This document shows, one piece after another, positions 25,926 to 32,233 of a stretch of 64,000 bases of DNA. The translations under genes and the position numbers were made by a program. The first letter of the stretch is position 1. Every line of letters begins with the position of its first letter. This DNA comes from Permianibacter fluminis (GTDB lineage: Bacteria; Pseudomonadota; Gammaproteobacteria; Enterobacterales; Permianibacteraceae), in contig NZ_JABMEG010000002.1 of assembly GCF_013179735.1 (NCBI RefSeq), forward strand, positions 124,001-188,000, read 5' to 3'. The notes beneath the pieces are model-generated. The model saw only the letters and a list, made by a program, of their open reading frames with translations. It ran no database searches and had not been told where the DNA came from.

Positions 25926-26861
25926 ATGAACGATACCGTTATGAACACCATCGCGATGAAAAAGCACGGCATGAAAAAAGCCATCATTCTGGCCGCGACG
26001 CTGCTGATCAGTCAGCGTTCGCTGGCGCTGGAAGTGTTTGCCTGCGAGCAGGAGTGGGGCGCGCTGGCGCAAACGCTTGGTGGCGACAAGGTCAGTGTCT
26101 ACGTCGCGACGACCGCGATGCAGGACATTCACACCATTGATGCCAGGCCGAGCCTGATTGCCAAATTGCGGCGTGCCGATCTGGTGGTCTGCTCCGGCGC
26201 TGATTTGGAAGTGGGCTGGTTGCCACAGCTGCAACGTCAGGCAGGCAATAGCCGGGTACAAAGCGGCAACGGGGTATTGTTCGCCGCGGATACGGTCAGC
26301 TTGCTGGAAAAACCGGGCGCGCTGGATCGCGCGCAGGGCGACGTCCATCCGCAGGGCAATCCGCATGTGCAATTTGATCCGCACCGGATGCTGACCGTGG
26401 CAACGGCGTTATCAGCGCGACTGGTAGCACTCGATGGCGCCAATGCTGATGGCTATCGAAAAAATTTCGCCAGCTTCAAAGACAGTTGGGAAAAAGCCAT
26501 CGCGCGCTGGGAGGCAGCGGCGGCGCCGTTGAAAGGTCGCAACGTCGTGGTCCAGCATTCGACGTTCACGTATTTGCTCAATTGGCTCGGCATGAATGCG
26601 GTCGCCATGATGGAACCGAAGCCCGGCCTGCCGCCGACCACGGCGCATCTGCAGGAAGTGCTGCAGATCATCAAAGCGCAGCCGGTCATGGCGGTGATGA
26701 ATGCGACCTATCAGGATGCGCGGCCATCGGAATGGTTGTCGGAACGTGCCGGCATTCCGATGGTGAGTTTGCCGCAGTCGATTGGTGGCGATGACAAATC
26801 CACCGATTTGATCGCCTGGTATGACAACGTCATTGGCTTGTTGCTGAAGGTGGCGAAATGA
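25926..26861 (+). CDS. Metal (zinc-type) ABC transporter substrate-binding protein, ZnuA-like
   Basis: Periplasmic cluster A-I metal-binding protein, 311 residues with its signal peptide. The likely metal ligands are His69 ('MQDIHTID'), His147 ('GNPHVQFDP') and His211 ('VVQHSTFTYLLNWLG'), with an Asp/Glu from the C-terminal lobe. The long His-rich loop of classical ZnuA is absent. Several Met codons are available at the start; the first has GAGGACAGG upstream and is followed by the signal core 'KKAIILAATLLISQRSLA'. It lies 12 bases after the porin gene and overlaps the permease gene by 4 bases (ATGA), so these form one operon. Zinc or manganese are both possible. Confidence 0.88.
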   Translation: MNDTVMNTIAMKKHGMKKAIILAATLLISQRSLALEVFACEQEWGALAQTLGGDKVSVYVATTAMQDIHTIDARPSLIAKLRRADLVVCSGADLEVGWLPQLQRQAGNSRVQSGNGVLFAADTVSLLEKPGALDRAQGDVHPQGNPHVQFDPHRMLTVATALSARLVALDGANADGYRKNFASFKDSWEKAIARWEAAAAPLKGRNVVVQHSTFTYLLNWLGMNAVAMMEPKPGLPPTTAHLQEVLQIIKAQPVMAVMNATYQDARPSEWLSERAGIPMVSLPQSIGGDDKSTDLIAWYDNVIGLLLKVAK

Positions 26862-27643
26862 ATTGGGATGCCTTGGATCTCAGCATACTCGGGCCGGCGT
26901 TTGTCGCCGGTCTGATTGTGCTCAGCACGCATGTGTTGCTCGGTCAGCAAGTGCTGGCGCGCGGCATCATTTTCATCGATTTGGCGATCGCCCAGATTGC
27001 CGCGTTGGGCGTCATTGCGGCCGAGTACGCCGGCATTGATGAACACAGCTATCTGGTGCAGGTCGCGGCGGCGGCGGCGGCGTTAATCGGCGGCGCCGTG
27101 CTCAATTGGTCGGACGGCAAATGGCCGGACAAACAGGAAGCGCTGATCGGCACGTCGTTTGCGTTGGCGGCGACGGCGGCGATTTTGCTGCTGGCCAACA
27201 ATCCGCATGGCGGCGAGCATTTGAAGGAATTGCTGGTCGGCCAGATTCTGTGGGTAAGCACGACCCAGATCGTAACGGCAGCGCTGGTCAGTGCCGGTTT
27301 GCTGATCGCGATGTGGCTGCGCCACGGCGCCAACAAAGGCTTTGGTTTCTACGCCATATTTGCCATTGCCATTACCCAGTCGGTGCAACTGGTCGGGGTC
27401 TATCTGGTGTTCACCAGTTTGATCGTACCGGCATTGGCCACAGATCATTTGACCGGCCGGCGGCGCCAGTTGACTGCGTTTGCGATCGGCATTGCGGGTT
27501 ATGCGCTGGGGCTGACGCTGTCGGCGCTGCTCGATTTGCCCAGTGGTGCGGTCATCGTCTGGTCGCTGGCCTGCTGCGGCGTGGCCTCGCGCTGGCTGTT
27601 GCCGGCGCCGCAAGGCAACGCGCCAGCGCCAGCGGCGCATTGA
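26858..27643 (+). CDS. Metal ABC transporter permease, ZnuB-like
   Basis: Inner-membrane permease of 261 residues, ABC-3 family, with about 7-8 helices. Family marks are 'GIIFIDLAIAQIAALGVIAA', 'GQILWVSTTQIV' and 'VGVYLVFTSLIVPALA'. The start codon overlaps the binding-protein stop (ATGA), giving translational coupling. A ZnuC-type ATPase would normally be encoded alongside, but the next gene is on the opposite strand and none is found between 24 and 28 kb, so the ATPase must be supplied from elsewhere or the system is incomplete. Confidence 0.9.
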   Translation: MNWDALDLSILGPAFVAGLIVLSTHVLLGQQVLARGIIFIDLAIAQIAALGVIAAEYAGIDEHSYLVQVAAAAAALIGGAVLNWSDGKWPDKQEALIGTSFALAATAAILLLANNPHGGEHLKELLVGQILWVSTTQIVTAALVSAGLLIAMWLRHGANKGFGFYAIFAIAITQSVQLVGVYLVFTSLIVPALATDHLTGRRRQLTAFAIGIAGYALGLTLSALLDLPSGAVIVWSLACCGVASRWLLPAPQGNAPAPAAH

Positions 27644-27656
27644 GTGAGGTCGGCGT

Positions 27657-28649
27657 TCAGCGCACGGCAGGTTCCGTACCGGTTTGATGCAGTGAGGTGC
27701 TGGACGCGGCAAAGCTGCCGATGAAACCGTCGCTGTTGTTGCGGGCAAAAAAGCGCGCAGCATCGCCGATGGTGTCGCGATAGCCGAGCGTGAACACCTG
27801 GGTGCGGCCGGCTGCGGCGGTCGCGCGCAAATCGGCTTCGATGCGCTGGGTCCACGGGTCATCGCTGGCATAGGCATTTTCGTACAGCACCGCATCCGGA
27901 TTGTCCGGATGCGGCTGCATCAGCGCGAGACCGGCGATGGTGTCGCTGCCATCGTCGTTCAACCACACGGCTTCGCCGATCAGGTTCAGGCCACGATTGA
28001 GCACAATGAAATCCTGCGGCCGTTGCTGTTTGAAAGCGCGAATCAAATCGATCATGGCCCGGGTTTTTTCGATGCGCTGTTCGCGACTCCAATTGGGGTG
28101 CGTCAGATAGCGGTCGACGGTGTCCGGCGTGTCGAGGAACAAACCGTGCAAGCCCTGTGCGGCCAGTTGCTCGGCCTGGTGCTGCAACCAGCGTTGCCAG
28201 AGCGGCGCACTGACATCGATGCGCCAGGAGGCGAATTTGTCATTCCATTCCACCACCAATTGCTCGAACGGCTGCTGCTGATCAACCGGCAGGGTCGCGA
28301 CGAAGGCGTCAAAGCGAGCCCGCTCGCGGCTGTCGAGTTCGCCGATGCTGAGATAGCCGAGCACGCGAGCTTGCTTGTCCCGGGCGCGCTGCAGCATGGC
28401 CTGCAGGCTGGCCGGGGCAATTTTCCGGCTGTCGAGGATTAGCACTTCATGGTCACCGAGCGACGCGCTCAGCCGCTGCAACTCGGCGCTGTCGTTGCCG
28501 TAATAGAGCTGATAGCTGCGGGCATCAAAATCACGGCTGTCGAGCGCGGGCAGCGCGGCGCAGCCGCCCAGCAGGGTGAGCAGAACGGCGGGCAGGGTCA
28601 TCAACCGAAGAGTACGAGAGATGACGCGGGTAGTGGTACGACGGAGCAT
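27657..28649 (-). CDS. GH114-like (endo alpha-1,4 polygalactosaminidase family) lipoprotein
   Basis: Lipoprotein of up to 330 residues; the lipobox is 'TLLGGC' followed by Ala. The rest is a TIM-barrel of the TM1410/GH114 type: 'YQLYYGNDSAELQRL', 'VLGYLSIGELDS', 'WRIDVSAPLWQRWL', 'GLHGLFLDTPDTVDRY', 'FIVLNRGLNL' and 'VLYENAYASDDPWTQ'. GH114 enzymes cleave galactosaminoglycan-type exopolysaccharide; the PelA hydrolase domain belongs nearby. The acidic pairs in 'GELDS' and 'LDTPD' are plausible catalytic residues. A second Met 16 codons in is an alternative start. It converges with the metal-uptake operon. No exopolysaccharide genes are adjacent. Confidence 0.8.
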   Translation of the reverse strand: MLRRTTTRVISRTLRLMTLPAVLLTLLGGCAALPALDSRDFDARSYQLYYGNDSAELQRLSASLGDHEVLILDSRKIAPASLQAMLQRARDKQARVLGYLSIGELDSRERARFDAFVATLPVDQQQPFEQLVVEWNDKFASWRIDVSAPLWQRWLQHQAEQLAAQGLHGLFLDTPDTVDRYLTHPNWSREQRIEKTRAMIDLIRAFKQQRPQDFIVLNRGLNLIGEAVWLNDDGSDTIAGLALMQPHPDNPDAVLYENAYASDDPWTQRIEADLRATAAAGRTQVFTLGYRDTIGDAARFFARNNSDGFIGSFAASSTSLHQTGTEPAVR

Positions 28650-28937: not shown

Positions 28938-29318
28938 ATGGCGCTGGTCCTGATCGTGGATGATGATCCCACGGTGCTGCGCATGCTGACGCAAGTCATG
29001 CAGCGCGACGGTCATACCGTCATGCAGGCCGAAGACGGTGAAGTGGCGATGCGGCTGTTTCGTCGCCAGCCGGCCGATATCATCATCACGGATTTGCTGA
29101 TGCCCAACAAAGAGGGCTTGGAACTGATCGCCGAGGCGCGCGAAGTGGCGCCGGCTGTCGGCATCATTGCCTATTCTGGCGGCGGCAAAATCCAGCCGGA
29201 AAACTATCTTGAATTTGCCACCGGCATGGGCGCCGATCGGGTGTTCACCAAGCCGGTGCCGATTACCGATTTATCGGTTGCGGTGCGCGAATTGCTGGCC
29301 AGTCGGGCCGCCGTTTGA
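28938..29318 (+). CDS. Single-domain response regulator (receiver only)
   Basis: CheY-like protein of 126 residues with no output domain. Acidic residues D8-D10, phospho-acceptor Asp52 ('IIITDLLMP'), 'YSGGG' after the switch position and Lys in 'VFTKPV' are intact, so it should be phosphorylatable. The ATG chosen is where the receiver fold begins, with AAGGAG 11 bases upstream; an upstream in-frame ATG at 28911 would add nine residues. It converges tail-to-tail with a kinase gene that lacks its phospho-acceptor His, sharing one terminator. Confidence 0.88.
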   Translation: MALVLIVDDDPTVLRMLTQVMQRDGHTVMQAEDGEVAMRLFRRQPADIIITDLLMPNKEGLELIAEAREVAPAVGIIAYSGGGKIQPENYLEFATGMGADRVFTKPVPITDLSVAVRELLASRAAV

Positions 29319-29346
29319 GTTGACTCAAACGCGTGAGTAAGAACAA

Positions 29347-29375
29347 CAAAACGCCGGCATCAAGCCGGCGTTTTG
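29347..29375. terminator. Bidirectional intrinsic terminator
   Basis: Inverted repeat CAAAACGCCGGC/GCCGGCGTTTTG with A-run before and T-run after, between the convergent receiver and kinase genes. Confidence 0.88.
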
Positions 29376-31108
29376 TTTTCCTGGGAATTTTCGCGGGCAA
29401 CCGGTTCCAGCGCCATCGTGAACCAGAATCGGCTGCCTTTGCCGACTTCTGAACTGACCCCGATTTCACCGCCCATCAATTCCGACAACTGCTTGCAGAC
29501 GATCAGCCGCAGCCGACCGGCGAAGCTGGCATTGGTCAGCCGTGAGCGGCTGTCGAGCGAGTCGAACAAACCGGCCTGGGCATCTTTCGGAATGCCCTGA
29601 CCGGTATCGCTGACCGAGAAGCGCAGCCGTTTCCGGTTGTCTTTTTCCAGCACGTCGACAAACACGCCGACTTCGCCTTCCTTGGTGAACCGGACCGCAT
29701 TGCCAACCAGATTGCCGAGAATCTGTTTGACCCGCGCCTCATCGGCCAGCGTGGTTTCGGGCACATCCATGTTGATGCTGTGGCTCAGCTTGAGATTCTT
29801 GGCGGTGGCGTGATGGGCAAATTCGTTGACCACCGATTCCACCAGCGGATGCACCTGCACCGGCTGCTTGTTCAGTTTCAACAGACCGGCATCCAGTTTG
29901 GAGAATTCCAGGATGTTGTTCAGGTTATCGACCAGGGTGCGGGCGGCGCGGCTGGCAATGGTCAGCAATTCGCGCGGTTCCTGCGGCAACCGATACTGAT
30001 CGAGCAGGTGCAGCATGCTCATCATGCTGTTCATTGGCGTGGTGATTTCATCGCCCATCCGCGACAGGAATTCGCTCTTGGTGCGCGGCGCGTTGACCGC
30101 GACATCGCGTTCGCGCAGCACGTGGCGAGTCTGCTCGACCAGCTGATCGTGCTGGCTGCGCAAACGCTGCAACTGGCTTTCCAACTGCTGTTGCTGATTG
30201 CCGCTTTGCTGCTGCCATTGCAGCAATGTCTGTTGCAGGCTGGCTGTTTCCGGGCTCGGGCGCAAACCGGCCAGACTGCCGCGCTGACCTTCGGCTTCAC
30301 GCTGGACTGCGGCAAGCAAGGCGGCGCGCGCCTGTTCATCGCGAATGCCATCCTGCCAGAGCCACCACGCGCCGGCCGCGCCGAGGGCCAACACAGCCAG
30401 TGCACCGAGCCACCACAGCGACGCCGTTTCGGTCGGCAGGTTGGTGATCGGGGCCAGCGTCAGTCGGTGGCTGCTGGTAACGCCTACCGGCCACGGCACC
30501 GCTTCACCGGCGCTGTCGCCGCTGGCATCGAACTGGAATGGCAAACCGGTGCGGGTTTCCAGGGTCTTGGCCAGCGTGGCATCAAGCGGCAGACCGGCCA
30601 TCACGACGCCAAGCGCCTGCCCTTCGCTGCGCAGCGTTTCGCTCAGCAGCAGCACGGCGCGTTCGCGCAGCAGGACTTCGGTGCCTTGCTTGGTTGGCTT
30701 GTCGCTGTATTGCTGCAACAGATAATCACCGATGCCATACAGCTCGCCGGGGCGGCTCGGGGCATCGGACAGGTACAAGGTGTTGCTGGAGCGGTCATGC
30801 AGCAGCACGACATCAAAACCGAAACTGTTTTCGGCCAATGACAATTCCCGCACCACCGTTGGCTGGGCGCCGCTGCGGATCAGATCGCGGACGCGCGGAT
30901 CCTGGGCAGTGCGTTCGAGGAATTGCTGGGTTTGTTCGAACAGCAATTGCAGCGCGCGACTGGCCTGCTGATTCTGCTGTTCATGGATAGCGTCAATGGC
31001 GGCGGCTCGTACAGTCGCGGCATTCTGGCCTACAGCGATCAGCAGCAGGCTGGCCAGCAGGGCCAGCACCGCAATGACCAGAACCAGACGCACTCGCAAT
31101 GTCATCAT
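29360..31108 (-). CDS. Degenerate membrane histidine kinase (His replaced by Asp)
   Basis: Membrane protein of 582 residues: helix about 5-28, a periplasmic sensor (double-CHASE/dCache-like, about 30-225), helix about 230-252, a long Gln-rich coiled coil (about 255-340), then HisKA and HATPase_c. In HisKA the block reads 'KSEFLSRMGDEITTPMNS' where the family has 'M(S/A)HE(I/L)RTP': the phospho-acceptor His is Asp353 (codon at 30050-30052). The N box ('ILGNLVGNAVRFT') and G1 ('VSDTGQGIP') remain, but the G2 box, usually GTGLGLA, reads 'FAGRLRLIVCKQL'. Autophosphorylation is therefore unlikely; a scaffold, phosphatase or allosteric role is possible. The ATG pair at the start follows 'GAGAG'. 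Confidence 0.88.
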   Translation of the reverse strand: MMTLRVRLVLVIAVLALLASLLLIAVGQNAATVRAAAIDAIHEQQNQQASRALQLLFEQTQQFLERTAQDPRVRDLIRSGAQPTVVRELSLAENSFGFDVVLLHDRSSNTLYLSDAPSRPGELYGIGDYLLQQYSDKPTKQGTEVLLRERAVLLLSETLRSEGQALGVVMAGLPLDATLAKTLETRTGLPFQFDASGDSAGEAVPWPVGVTSSHRLTLAPITNLPTETASLWWLGALAVLALGAAGAWWLWQDGIRDEQARAALLAAVQREAEGQRGSLAGLRPSPETASLQQTLLQWQQQSGNQQQQLESQLQRLRSQHDQLVEQTRHVLRERDVAVNAPRTKSEFLSRMGDEITTPMNSMMSMLHLLDQYRLPQEPRELLTIASRAARTLVDNLNNILEFSKLDAGLLKLNKQPVQVHPLVESVVNEFAHHATAKNLKLSHSINMDVPETTLADEARVKQILGNLVGNAVRFTKEGEVGVFVDVLEKDNRKRLRFSVSDTGQGIPKDAQAGLFDSLDSRSRLTNASFAGRLRLIVCKQLSELMGGEIGVSSEVGKGSRFWFTMALEPVARENSQENKTPA

Positions 31109-31321: not shown

Positions 31322-32233
31322 TCAAAGTCCGCTGCTTTGTCGTTGCTGAACGCGTGCCAGCAAGTCCCGGTGATGTGGAACGGGTACCCCGTTGCGGGCC
31401 GCGGCTTCGATCAGGCTGCCGGTGATGAAATCGATTTCGGTGCGGCGATGCTGGCTGTAGTCCTGCTGCATCGAGTTGTAATTGGCGGCGGTCGCCTCGG
31501 CAATCGCGGTGACCCGCTGCAGCAGGCCGTTGGCGTCAATGGCATGACCCGCGGCAGTGGCTGCCGCGGCGGCTTCCGCAGCCAGCGGTGGTAGCCAGCG
31601 CTGGGCAATCGGATGGCTGAGCAATTCGCCGTTGCGACAGTTCAGCAGTGCCGTCAGCGGATTGATGCAGGCATTGACCGCCAGCTTGTGCCAGAGCCGG
31701 GTCGCGATGGCATCGTCCCACTGTACCTGCAGCGCCGTGGCTTGCAGCGAGGCGAGAGCGGCTGCGTGTTCGGCCGGAGGCAGCGTGCCGCGACCGGGTC
31801 CGAGCCAGATACCGCCGGTGCCGGCCTGCACCACGTGCTGGCTGCTGCGGCGAAAGCTGCCATGGGTGCTGGTGCCGAGCCAGATCACGGTTTGTTCCGG
31901 CAGCAGCCGACGGGCAATCGCTTCGGCGCCCAAACCGTTCTGCAGCAGCACAACCAGTCGCAGTGAGGGGTAATTCGGCGTCAGCGCCAGCAGTGCCGAC
32001 TCGACATCCGGCGCTTTGACGGTCAGCAGCAGGCGCTGTACCGATTCGGCCTGACCGACGGCCGCGCAGGTAATGGCGACAGCCAGGCTGCGACCGGCGC
32101 GTTCCAGCGTCAGCAGGCGGGTGCACTCCTGACTGCCCGGTCGCAGCAACAGACTGGCCGGCTGTCCGGCTTCGGTCAGCGCCGCTGCCCACAGCAAGCC
32201 TTGAGCACCAGCGCCGAGAATGTGCCAGTTCAT
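31322..32233 (-). CDS. 2-dehydropantoate 2-reductase family (PanE/ApbA)
   Basis: NADPH-dependent reductase of 303 residues. The Rossmann site is 'WHILGAGAQGLLWAAAL', followed by 'LLTVKAPDVESALLAL' and 'VVLLQNGLGAEAIARRLLP'. The C-terminal helical domain has the catalytic/substrate segment 'LWHKLAVNACINPLTALLNC' and 'TEIDFITGSLIEAAARNGVP'. In the pantothenate pathway PanE converts ketopantoate to pantoate. No other pan gene is close. Its start region lies back-to-back with the AmpG-like gene, so the two are divergently transcribed from the gap of about 80 bases. Confidence 0.9.
   Translation of the reverse strand: MNWHILGAGAQGLLWAAALTEAGQPASLLLRPGSQECTRLLTLERAGRSLAVAITCAAVGQAESVQRLLLTVKAPDVESALLALTPNYPSLRLVVLLQNGLGAEAIARRLLPEQTVIWLGTSTHGSFRRSSQHVVQAGTGGIWLGPGRGTLPPAEHAAALASLQATALQVQWDDAIATRLWHKLAVNACINPLTALLNCRNGELLSHPIAQRWLPPLAAEAAAAATAAGHAIDANGLLQRVTAIAEATAANYNSMQQDYSQHRRTEIDFITGSLIEAAARNGVPVPHHRDLLARVQQRQSSGL

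What the first reader, a model, noticed from the sequence alone, without database searches (positions are those of the whole stretch)
29360..31108. Pseudo-histidine kinase: phospho-acceptor His is Asp and G2 box is eroded
The HisKA block reads 'KSEFLSRMGDEITTPMNS' instead of '..MSHEIRTP..'. The G2 box reads 'AGRLRL' rather than 'GTGLGL', while the N and G1 boxes and the periplasmic sensor are kept. The gene is intact, long and well translated, so loss of function through decay is unlikely. It faces a single-domain receiver gene, suggesting a non-classical signalling pair such as a sensor that modulates another kinase or dephosphorylates the receiver.
Basis: seen in the sequence. Interest (0 to 1): 0.6.

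Follow-up and report, generated by a model that had tools for sequence, protein, structure and literature searches.

The report
Conserved dead histidine kinase with receiver
This gene encodes a bacterial membrane sensor that looks like a histidine kinase but has lost the parts needed to phosphorylate itself, and because the same losses are preserved in a family of related bacteria, often beside one small receiver protein, it is probably a working non-kinase regulator rather than a decayed gene.

Summary
Window 29360-31108 (-) encodes a 582-aa protein whose HisKA phospho-acceptor is Asp353 and whose G2 box is destroyed; N and G1 boxes are intact. It is not a private mutation: in the 27 genomes found with an orthologue (E<=1e-55; 27 distinct cores) the site is Asp in 26 and Glu in 1, against His in 44 of 44 comparison kinases. 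G2 is a one-residue deletion plus two basic residues (GTGLGL to GR-LRL; Arg532 27/27, Arg/Lys534 27/27); the +3 Arg is Thr in 27/27. The sensor varies, the dead core is conserved. The convergent single-domain receiver keeps its phosphorylation residues (18/18) and was found only in genomes that hold the pseudokinase, but 9 of 27 pseudokinase genomes lack it: the pair is real but not obligatory. Most likely this is a non-phosphorylating sensor that works by docking, in the manner of RetS or DivL, on a receiver and/or another kinase; a dedicated receiver phosphatase is the main rival. Pseudo-histidine kinases are known; this is a lineage with its own Asp/Arg signature for which my paper searches showed no description. 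No biochemistry was done.

The parts
29360..31108 (-). Pseudo-histidine kinase gene, 582 aa (start ATG 31108 or, by alignment with relatives, ATG 31105)
30425..31027 (-). Residues 28-228 as modelled: periplasmic sensor, CHASE4/Cache-like
   Evidence: Pfam CHASE4 18.8 bits, below its cut-off of 26.2; model pLDDT 83.7, pTM 0.77; best structural match CHASE4 of IsmP, Z 12.9, 4.4 A over 188 residues, other sensor folds tied
29885..30079 (-). HisKA domain, residues 344-408
   Evidence: Pfam 41.9 bits
30050..30052 (-). Codon 353: Asp in place of the phospho-acceptor His
   Evidence: 26 Asp + 1 Glu of 27 family members; His in 44 of 44 comparison kinases
30038..30040 (-). Codon 357: Thr at +4, the position of HK853 T264 in the HisKA phosphatase reaction
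   Evidence: T 23, S 1, V 1, L 1, M 1 of 27; role from PMC5727384 passages
29405..29743 (-). HATPase_c domain, residues 456-568; N and G1 boxes intact
   Evidence: Pfam 80.8 bits; N466, N470, D501, G503, G505 27/27
29504..29518 (-). Residues 531-535, remnant of the G2 box: G-R-(deleted residue)-L-R-L
   Evidence: R532 27/27; R534 25 + K 2; length count
28938..29318 (+). Convergent single-domain response regulator, 126 aa
   Evidence: Pfam Response_reg 77.2 bits; D8-D10, D52, S/T80 and K105 kept in 18 of 18
29345..29377 (.). Terminator-like hairpin between the convergent genes; it overlaps the last codons of the pseudokinase
   Evidence: 14 pairs, 8 G-C; 5 such sites found in the region against 3.2 expected in shuffles
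31322..32233 (-). Ketopantoate-reductase-family gene (PanE/ApbA) directly upstream of the pseudokinase, same strand
   Evidence: Pfam ApbA_C 118.7 bits; same place in 22 of 24 loci, the pseudokinase lying at the contig start in the other two

Best explanation
It is a conserved pseudo-histidine kinase of the GacS/BarA type. It cannot autophosphorylate, because the acceptor His is Asp and the nucleotide-phosphate loop (G2) is broken. A CHASE4-like periplasmic domain reads a signal, and the HisKA/ATPase module passes it on by protein contact: it docks a receiver (the convergent single-domain regulator where there is one) and/or another HisKA kinase and changes that partner's phosphorylation, as RetS does to GacS or DivL to CckA. 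Shown here: the substitutions, their conservation, the loss of catalytic motifs, the genomic link to the receiver. Inferred: lack of autokinase, sensing, docking. The identity of any partner kinase is unknown.
For: 27 of 27 distinct cores lack His (26 Asp, 1 Glu) and have Thr at +3, Arg532 and Arg/Lys534; 44 of 44 comparison kinases have His and Gly at the last G2 position. The 27 family rows put in the tree (26 distinct; L012 not included) are one clade, 100/100, on a stem of 1.9 changes per column. In the 13 pairs with at least 62% overall identity, the core is 77-85% identical and the sensor 46-61%, apart from one near-identical pair at 99% and 98%: the opposite of decay. Asp353 and the basic G2 persist in 9 members without the receiver, two of which (L020, L021) also lack the large periplasmic domain (as L055, L056). 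The receiver keeps its phosphorylation residues (18/18) and was found only with the pseudokinase. The model of the core matches RetS (Z 23.9, 2.7 A over 218 residues), tied with the ETR1 catalytic domain (23.3, 149 residues); DivL 22.1. The family profile scores GacS highest among solved chains (219.6 bits). Precedents: RetS, with a degenerate ATPase domain, attenuates GacS in three ways (PMC5992135, passages); DivL lacks kinase and phosphatase activity and binds the response regulator DivK~P (PMC4211667, passages).
Against: No partner kinase was identified. The nearest kinase of the own genome, BarA-like, occurs in 18 of 19 pseudokinase-bearing and 20 of 21 pseudokinase-lacking genomes of one family, so co-occurrence does not point to it. 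The +4 Thr kept in most members leaves a phosphatase open. Structural similarity to RetS is shared with many kinases (ShkA 22.3, HK853 21.8) and shows no function. All 27 members descend from one event, so invariance is shared descent plus selection, not 27 independent cases. 9 of 27 lack the receiver.
Confidence: 0.5

Rival explanations
1. Dedicated phosphatase: Asp353 replaces His as the residue that, with Thr357, orients the water attacking the phospho-aspartate of the receiver; loss of G2 removes the kinase activity. The periplasmic signal sets the rate at which the receiver is dephosphorylated.
For: HK853 is proposed to use its His and the +4 Thr together on the catalytic water (PMC5727384, passages); His is not essential for HisKA phosphatase activity (PMC12632262 section 6); RetS, with a degenerate ATPase domain, has transmitter phosphatase activity, and retS(T428A) is the mutant lacking it (PMC5992135, passages). 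In this family +4 is Thr or Ser in 18 of 18 members whose genome has the receiver, and Val, Leu or Met in 3 of the 9 without it.
Against: Asp353 and G2 stay conserved in members without the receiver, 3 of them without a Thr/Ser at +4; the other six (Pleionea-type) keep Thr357 without the receiver; the +3 Arg is lost; the pseudokinase DivL has no phosphatase activity; H260A in HK853 diminishes phosphatase activity, and PMC12632262 argues against phosphatase as a general role of pseudo-histidine kinases. The +4 pattern rests on about three loss events, one of them in an 85% complete genome (G015).
Confidence: 0.27
2. It still carries phosphoryl groups, on Asp353 or another residue, and acts as an unusual kinase or relay.
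For: The N and G1 boxes, Asp501 included, are invariant, so nucleotide binding may survive.
Against: The GXGXG motif is gone in 27 of 27; [quoted passage not shown] one member has Glu at the site.
Confidence: 0.05
3. Decaying or mis-sequenced kinase gene.
For: Loss of catalytic motifs is what decay could begin with.
Against: Unbroken frame in 27 of 27 genomes (two cut by contig ends), same changes in all, core better conserved than the sensor; the one unsaturated pair (L049/L051) gives dN/dS about 0.009 in the core (synonymous sites are saturated in the other 12 pairs).
Confidence: 0.02
4. Neighbourhood link only: the receiver and pseudokinase are adjacent by inherited gene order and work in separate pathways.
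For: Other neighbours are also conserved (PanE-like in 22 of 24 loci, AmpG-like transporter in 19 of 24); in G296 the receiver stays with genes that flank it in relatives after the pair was parted (by eye).
Against: In the samples searched the receiver was found only in genomes with the pseudokinase (7 of 295 order, 1 of 369 class genomes), also in the one case where they are apart.
Confidence: 0.15

Closest known systems
RetS (Pseudomonas aeruginosa)
   Same: GacS-type HisKA plus a degenerate ATPase domain, unable to autophosphorylate; periplasmic sensor; top structural match of the core (Z 23.9, tied with ETR1)
   Different: RetS keeps the HisKA His (alignment) and carries receiver domains; here His is Asp, there is no fused receiver, and a separate single-domain receiver lies next door
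DivL with DivK (Caulobacter)
   Same: Pseudo-histidine kinase linked to a response regulator (DivK; single-domain from recall); core fold alike (Z 22.1)
   Different: DivL has Tyr at the site, keeps N, G1, F and G2 boxes and has PAS domains; here Asp, broken G2, CHASE4-like sensor, another class of bacteria
RocA (group A Streptococcus)
   Same: Membrane pseudokinase that acts through another sensor kinase, CovS (PMC7028121, passages)
   Different: RocA still has a DHp His (H246, dispensable); sequence relation not tested here
BarA/GacS hybrid kinases
   Same: Among the nearest active relatives: family models TorS 206 and BarA 182.6 bits, both far below their cut-offs; GacS 219.6 bits with the family profile
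   Different: The BarA-like kinase of the own genome has His, GTGLGL and C-terminal receiver (by eye) and Hpt regions; the pseudokinase ends after the ATPase domain

Membership tests
HisKA/HATPase_c histidine kinases | HisKA and HATPase_c domains over the curated cut-offs | tested here: met
   41.9 and 80.8 bits against 26.9 and 26.4
HisKA/HATPase_c histidine kinases | Phospho-acceptor His | tested here: not met
   Asp 26, Glu 1 of 27; His 44 of 44 in the comparison kinases
HisKA/HATPase_c histidine kinases | G2 box GXGXG | tested here: not met
   GR-LRL in the window; no member has GXGXG
HisKA/HATPase_c histidine kinases | N and G1 boxes | tested here: met
   N466, N470, D501, G503, G505 in 27 of 27
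HisKA/HATPase_c histidine kinases | Autokinase activity | not testable with these tools
   needs protein chemistry
Pseudo-histidine kinases (as a kind) | Lacks one or more catalytic functions but is a conserved part of signalling | tested here: inconclusive
   Loss of motifs and conservation shown; a place in signalling is inferred from the receiver link
DivL | Tyr (or Ala) at the site with G2 retained; PAS domains | tested here: not met
   Asp, G2 broken; no PAS among the 8 Pfam rows listed
RetS | Degenerate ATPase domain | tested here: met
   G2 lost; N and G1, however, are intact
RetS | HisKA His and receiver domains | tested here: not met
   Asp353; protein ends after HATPase_c, no receiver among the Pfam rows
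CHASE4 sensor domain | Pfam CHASE4 over its cut-off, or the fold | tested here: inconclusive
   18.8 bits against 26.2; fold match Z 12.9, but other sensor folds score within 1
Single-domain response regulator (28938-29318) | Receiver only, with acidic pocket, phospho-Asp, Ser/Thr and Lys | tested here: met
   18 of 18

The most novel reading that the evidence does not exclude
A built-in electrostatic clamp: the acid at the former His site (Asp/Glu353) pairs with the basic residues that replaced the G2 residues near the ATP phosphates (Arg532, Arg/Lys534), so that the ATPase domain is held on the helix bundle as if a His-ATP reaction complex had been frozen, and the periplasmic signal opens or closes it to expose the docking face. 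Charge is kept through every substitution seen at these sites (Asp to Glu in L009; Arg to Lys at 534 in L011 and L019), including in members that have lost the receiver, and in two that also lack the large sensor.
Probability: 0.18. Interest if true: 0.75.

Novelty: new variant of a known kind. Interest (0 to 1): 0.5.

Why it matters
Few pseudo-histidine kinases are understood, and about 0.9% of HisKA domains in one survey lack His (722 of 76,471; PMC12632262 section 6). One family with fixed, charge-complementary replacements, with and without a linked receiver and with and without a large sensor domain, is a natural series of variants in which the old question, what a kinase module does once it can no longer phosphorylate, could be tested directly, for instance in named strains of Aliikangiella and Pleionea.

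Tried and rejected
Private mutation or sequencing error: rejected, 27 of 27. The first named-genome scan, with the single protein, found nothing; a scan with an alignment worked, but one of its two patterns contains the Asp (FLSRMGDE), so that list alone is biased. The whole-protein searches, which do not select for Asp, gave the same family: each of the 23 named members has the same core as one of the 27 found without names. Those searches used E<=1e-55, sampled the order (295 of a larger group) and scored only up to 4 candidates per genome, so the 27 are a lower bound.

Controls and rows left out. The 44 comparison kinases are a chosen set: 7 of the 29 other matches of the own genome, 29 loci of the class search and 8 of the 57 non-family loci, picked after one search had shown their His blocks. 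Over all 57 the site is His in 45, Asn in 2 (L078, L079), Tyr in 2 (L090, L095), Asp in 1 badly aligned archaeal locus (L097, no HisKA-like block), and not aligned in 7. The tree has 27 family rows with one identical pair and without L012. dN/dS used 23 sequences and only the 13 pairs at 62% identity or more.

BarA as obligate partner: no support. The clamp could not be checked on the model because its coordinates are not exported; pTM of the full model is 0.42, so the domain arrangement is uncertain. Plasmids: no match at 1e-50. Ethylene receptors as a parallel (acid at the His site): recalled, the passages read did not confirm it, not used. Literature: ten searches listed no paper that by title or abstract is about this family; several of the lists were partial. 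The review of Collins and Childers (2021) is cited from PMC12632262 and was not read.

Full report
What is there. The gene at 29360-31108 (-) encodes 582 aa: a membrane-anchored domain that is periplasmic by its two hydrophobic helices (by eye and model), a coiled coil, HisKA (344-408) and HATPase_c (456-568). The acceptor His is Asp353, the +3 Arg is Thr356, and the G2 box has lost one residue and gained two arginines (Arg532, Arg534). The N and G1 boxes are complete.

Is it real? Whole-protein searches at E<=1e-55 found the gene in 14 of 295 genomes sampled from the order and 19 of 40 of one family; six genomes are in both, so 27 in all, the window's included. All 27 have an unbroken frame to the stop (two begin beyond a contig end), Asp (26) or Glu (1) at the site, and the same G2 pattern. 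The 23 named members (Aliikangiella, Pleionea, Kangiellaceae and other gammaproteobacterial MAGs) repeat 23 of these; 27 cores are distinct. The other 57 loci of the named scan are not of this family: His in 45, Asn 2, Tyr 2, a badly aligned Asp 1, unread 7. Against a chosen set of 44 comparison kinases the contrast is total at 353 (His 44/44), 356 (Arg 43, Lys 1) and 534 (Gly 44/44), and nil at N466, N470, D501, G503, G505. The tree puts the 27 family rows given to it (26 distinct) in one clade (100/100) after a long stem. In a class-wide search of 369 genomes with the family profile the window's own gene scores 650.6 bits and the next best 257.5, in a 985-aa frame that has His and an ordinary G2 (L123): the family is well separated.

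The receiver. The convergent gene 28938-29318 is a lone receiver domain. A relative lies next to the pseudokinase, in opposite orientation, in 17 of 27 genomes. In G296 it lies elsewhere, 85% identical to another member's receiver, beside genes that flank it in relatives (by eye), so a rearrangement parted the pair without loss. At E<=1e-18, with all candidates scored, the other nine genomes have no counterpart apart from one 40% identical hit in G030 (1.7e-21), which I do not count. In the other direction, the receiver (E<=1e-35) was found in 7 of 295 order genomes, all with the pseudokinase, and (E<=1e-30) in 1 of 369 class genomes, the window's own; these two searches scored only the best candidates of each genome. 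All 18 receivers keep the phosphorylation residues. So the receiver seems to need the pseudokinase, but not the reverse.

What the nine receiver-less members say. All nine keep Asp353, Thr356, Arg532 and a basic 534. L020 and L021 (named copies L055, L056) also lack the large periplasmic domain. The special residues are therefore kept for something other than this receiver, which favours a docking or allosteric role with other partners over a pure receiver phosphatase, though the +4 pattern is what a phosphatase role in receiver-bearing lineages would predict. The number of independent losses is small (about three on the tree), and one genome is only 85% complete.

Structure. The model of the whole protein (pLDDT 80.3, pTM 0.42) matches in its core RetS (Z 23.9) and the ETR1 catalytic domain (23.3), then ShkA, DivL and HK853. 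The sensor alone (pLDDT 83.7, pTM 0.77) matches CHASE4 of IsmP (Z 12.9, 17% identity) with other sensor folds tied. Fold similarity shows no function.

Mechanism. Shown: loss of the catalytic set with conservation of the rest; genomic link to the receiver. From passages read: RetS, DivL, ChrS and RocA are precedents for kinase-dead transmitters that act on other kinases or regulators; HK853 shows how His and the +4 Thr may share a water in the phosphatase reaction. Inferred: this protein reads a periplasmic signal and acts by docking. The bold addition, an acid-base clamp between 353 and 532/534, fits the charge-preserving substitutions but is untested; that G2 lies close to the ATP phosphates and to His in the reacting state is established knowledge, recalled.

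Neighbourhood. A PanE-family gene lies directly upstream on the same strand in 22 of 24 loci (window and 23 named), the pseudokinase being at the contig start in the other two; an AmpG-like (recalled name; Pfam MFS_1) transporter in 19 of 24; the receiver in 15 of 24. Thus the pseudokinase is more tightly tied to PanE than to the receiver; whether they are co-transcribed is unknown.

Verdict. A conserved, probably functional pseudokinase lineage: a new variant of a known kind.

Noticed in passing
31322-32233 (-) and upstream of the pseudokinase in L035-L057: A PanE/ApbA-family reductase gene directly precedes the pseudokinase in every locus long enough to show it (22 of 24), also where the receiver is missing.
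   Followed up: partly
L036 7442-7828, L039 7339-7740, L045 7774-8190: In three of the five receiver-less Pleionea-type named loci a SelR/MsrB-like gene follows the pseudokinase on the same strand, within a few bases in two of them (Pfam SelR on the L037 homologue); this may hint at an oxidative signal.
   Followed up: no
L157 4130-5536 (G296): Where the receiver is parted from the pseudokinase it lies tail to tail with a gene whose product looks like a GGDEF diguanylate cyclase (by eye, no family search).
   Followed up: no
L055 5638-6810, L056 5572-6774: Family members of 390 and 400 aa that lack the large periplasmic domain but keep Asp353 and the basic G2.
   Followed up: partly
25926-27643 (+) and 27657-28649 (-): ZnuA-like and ABC-3 metal transport genes and a GH114-family gene beside the receiver; no counterpart near the gene in the named relatives.
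   Followed up: no
L078, L079, L090, L095: Other HisKA modules without His picked up by the scan: Asn (SNEIKIP) in two Lachnospiraceae loci, and Tyr (VSYQLRTP) in Robiginitomaculum and Caulobacterales MAGs, which are probably DivL (recalled motif).
   Followed up: no
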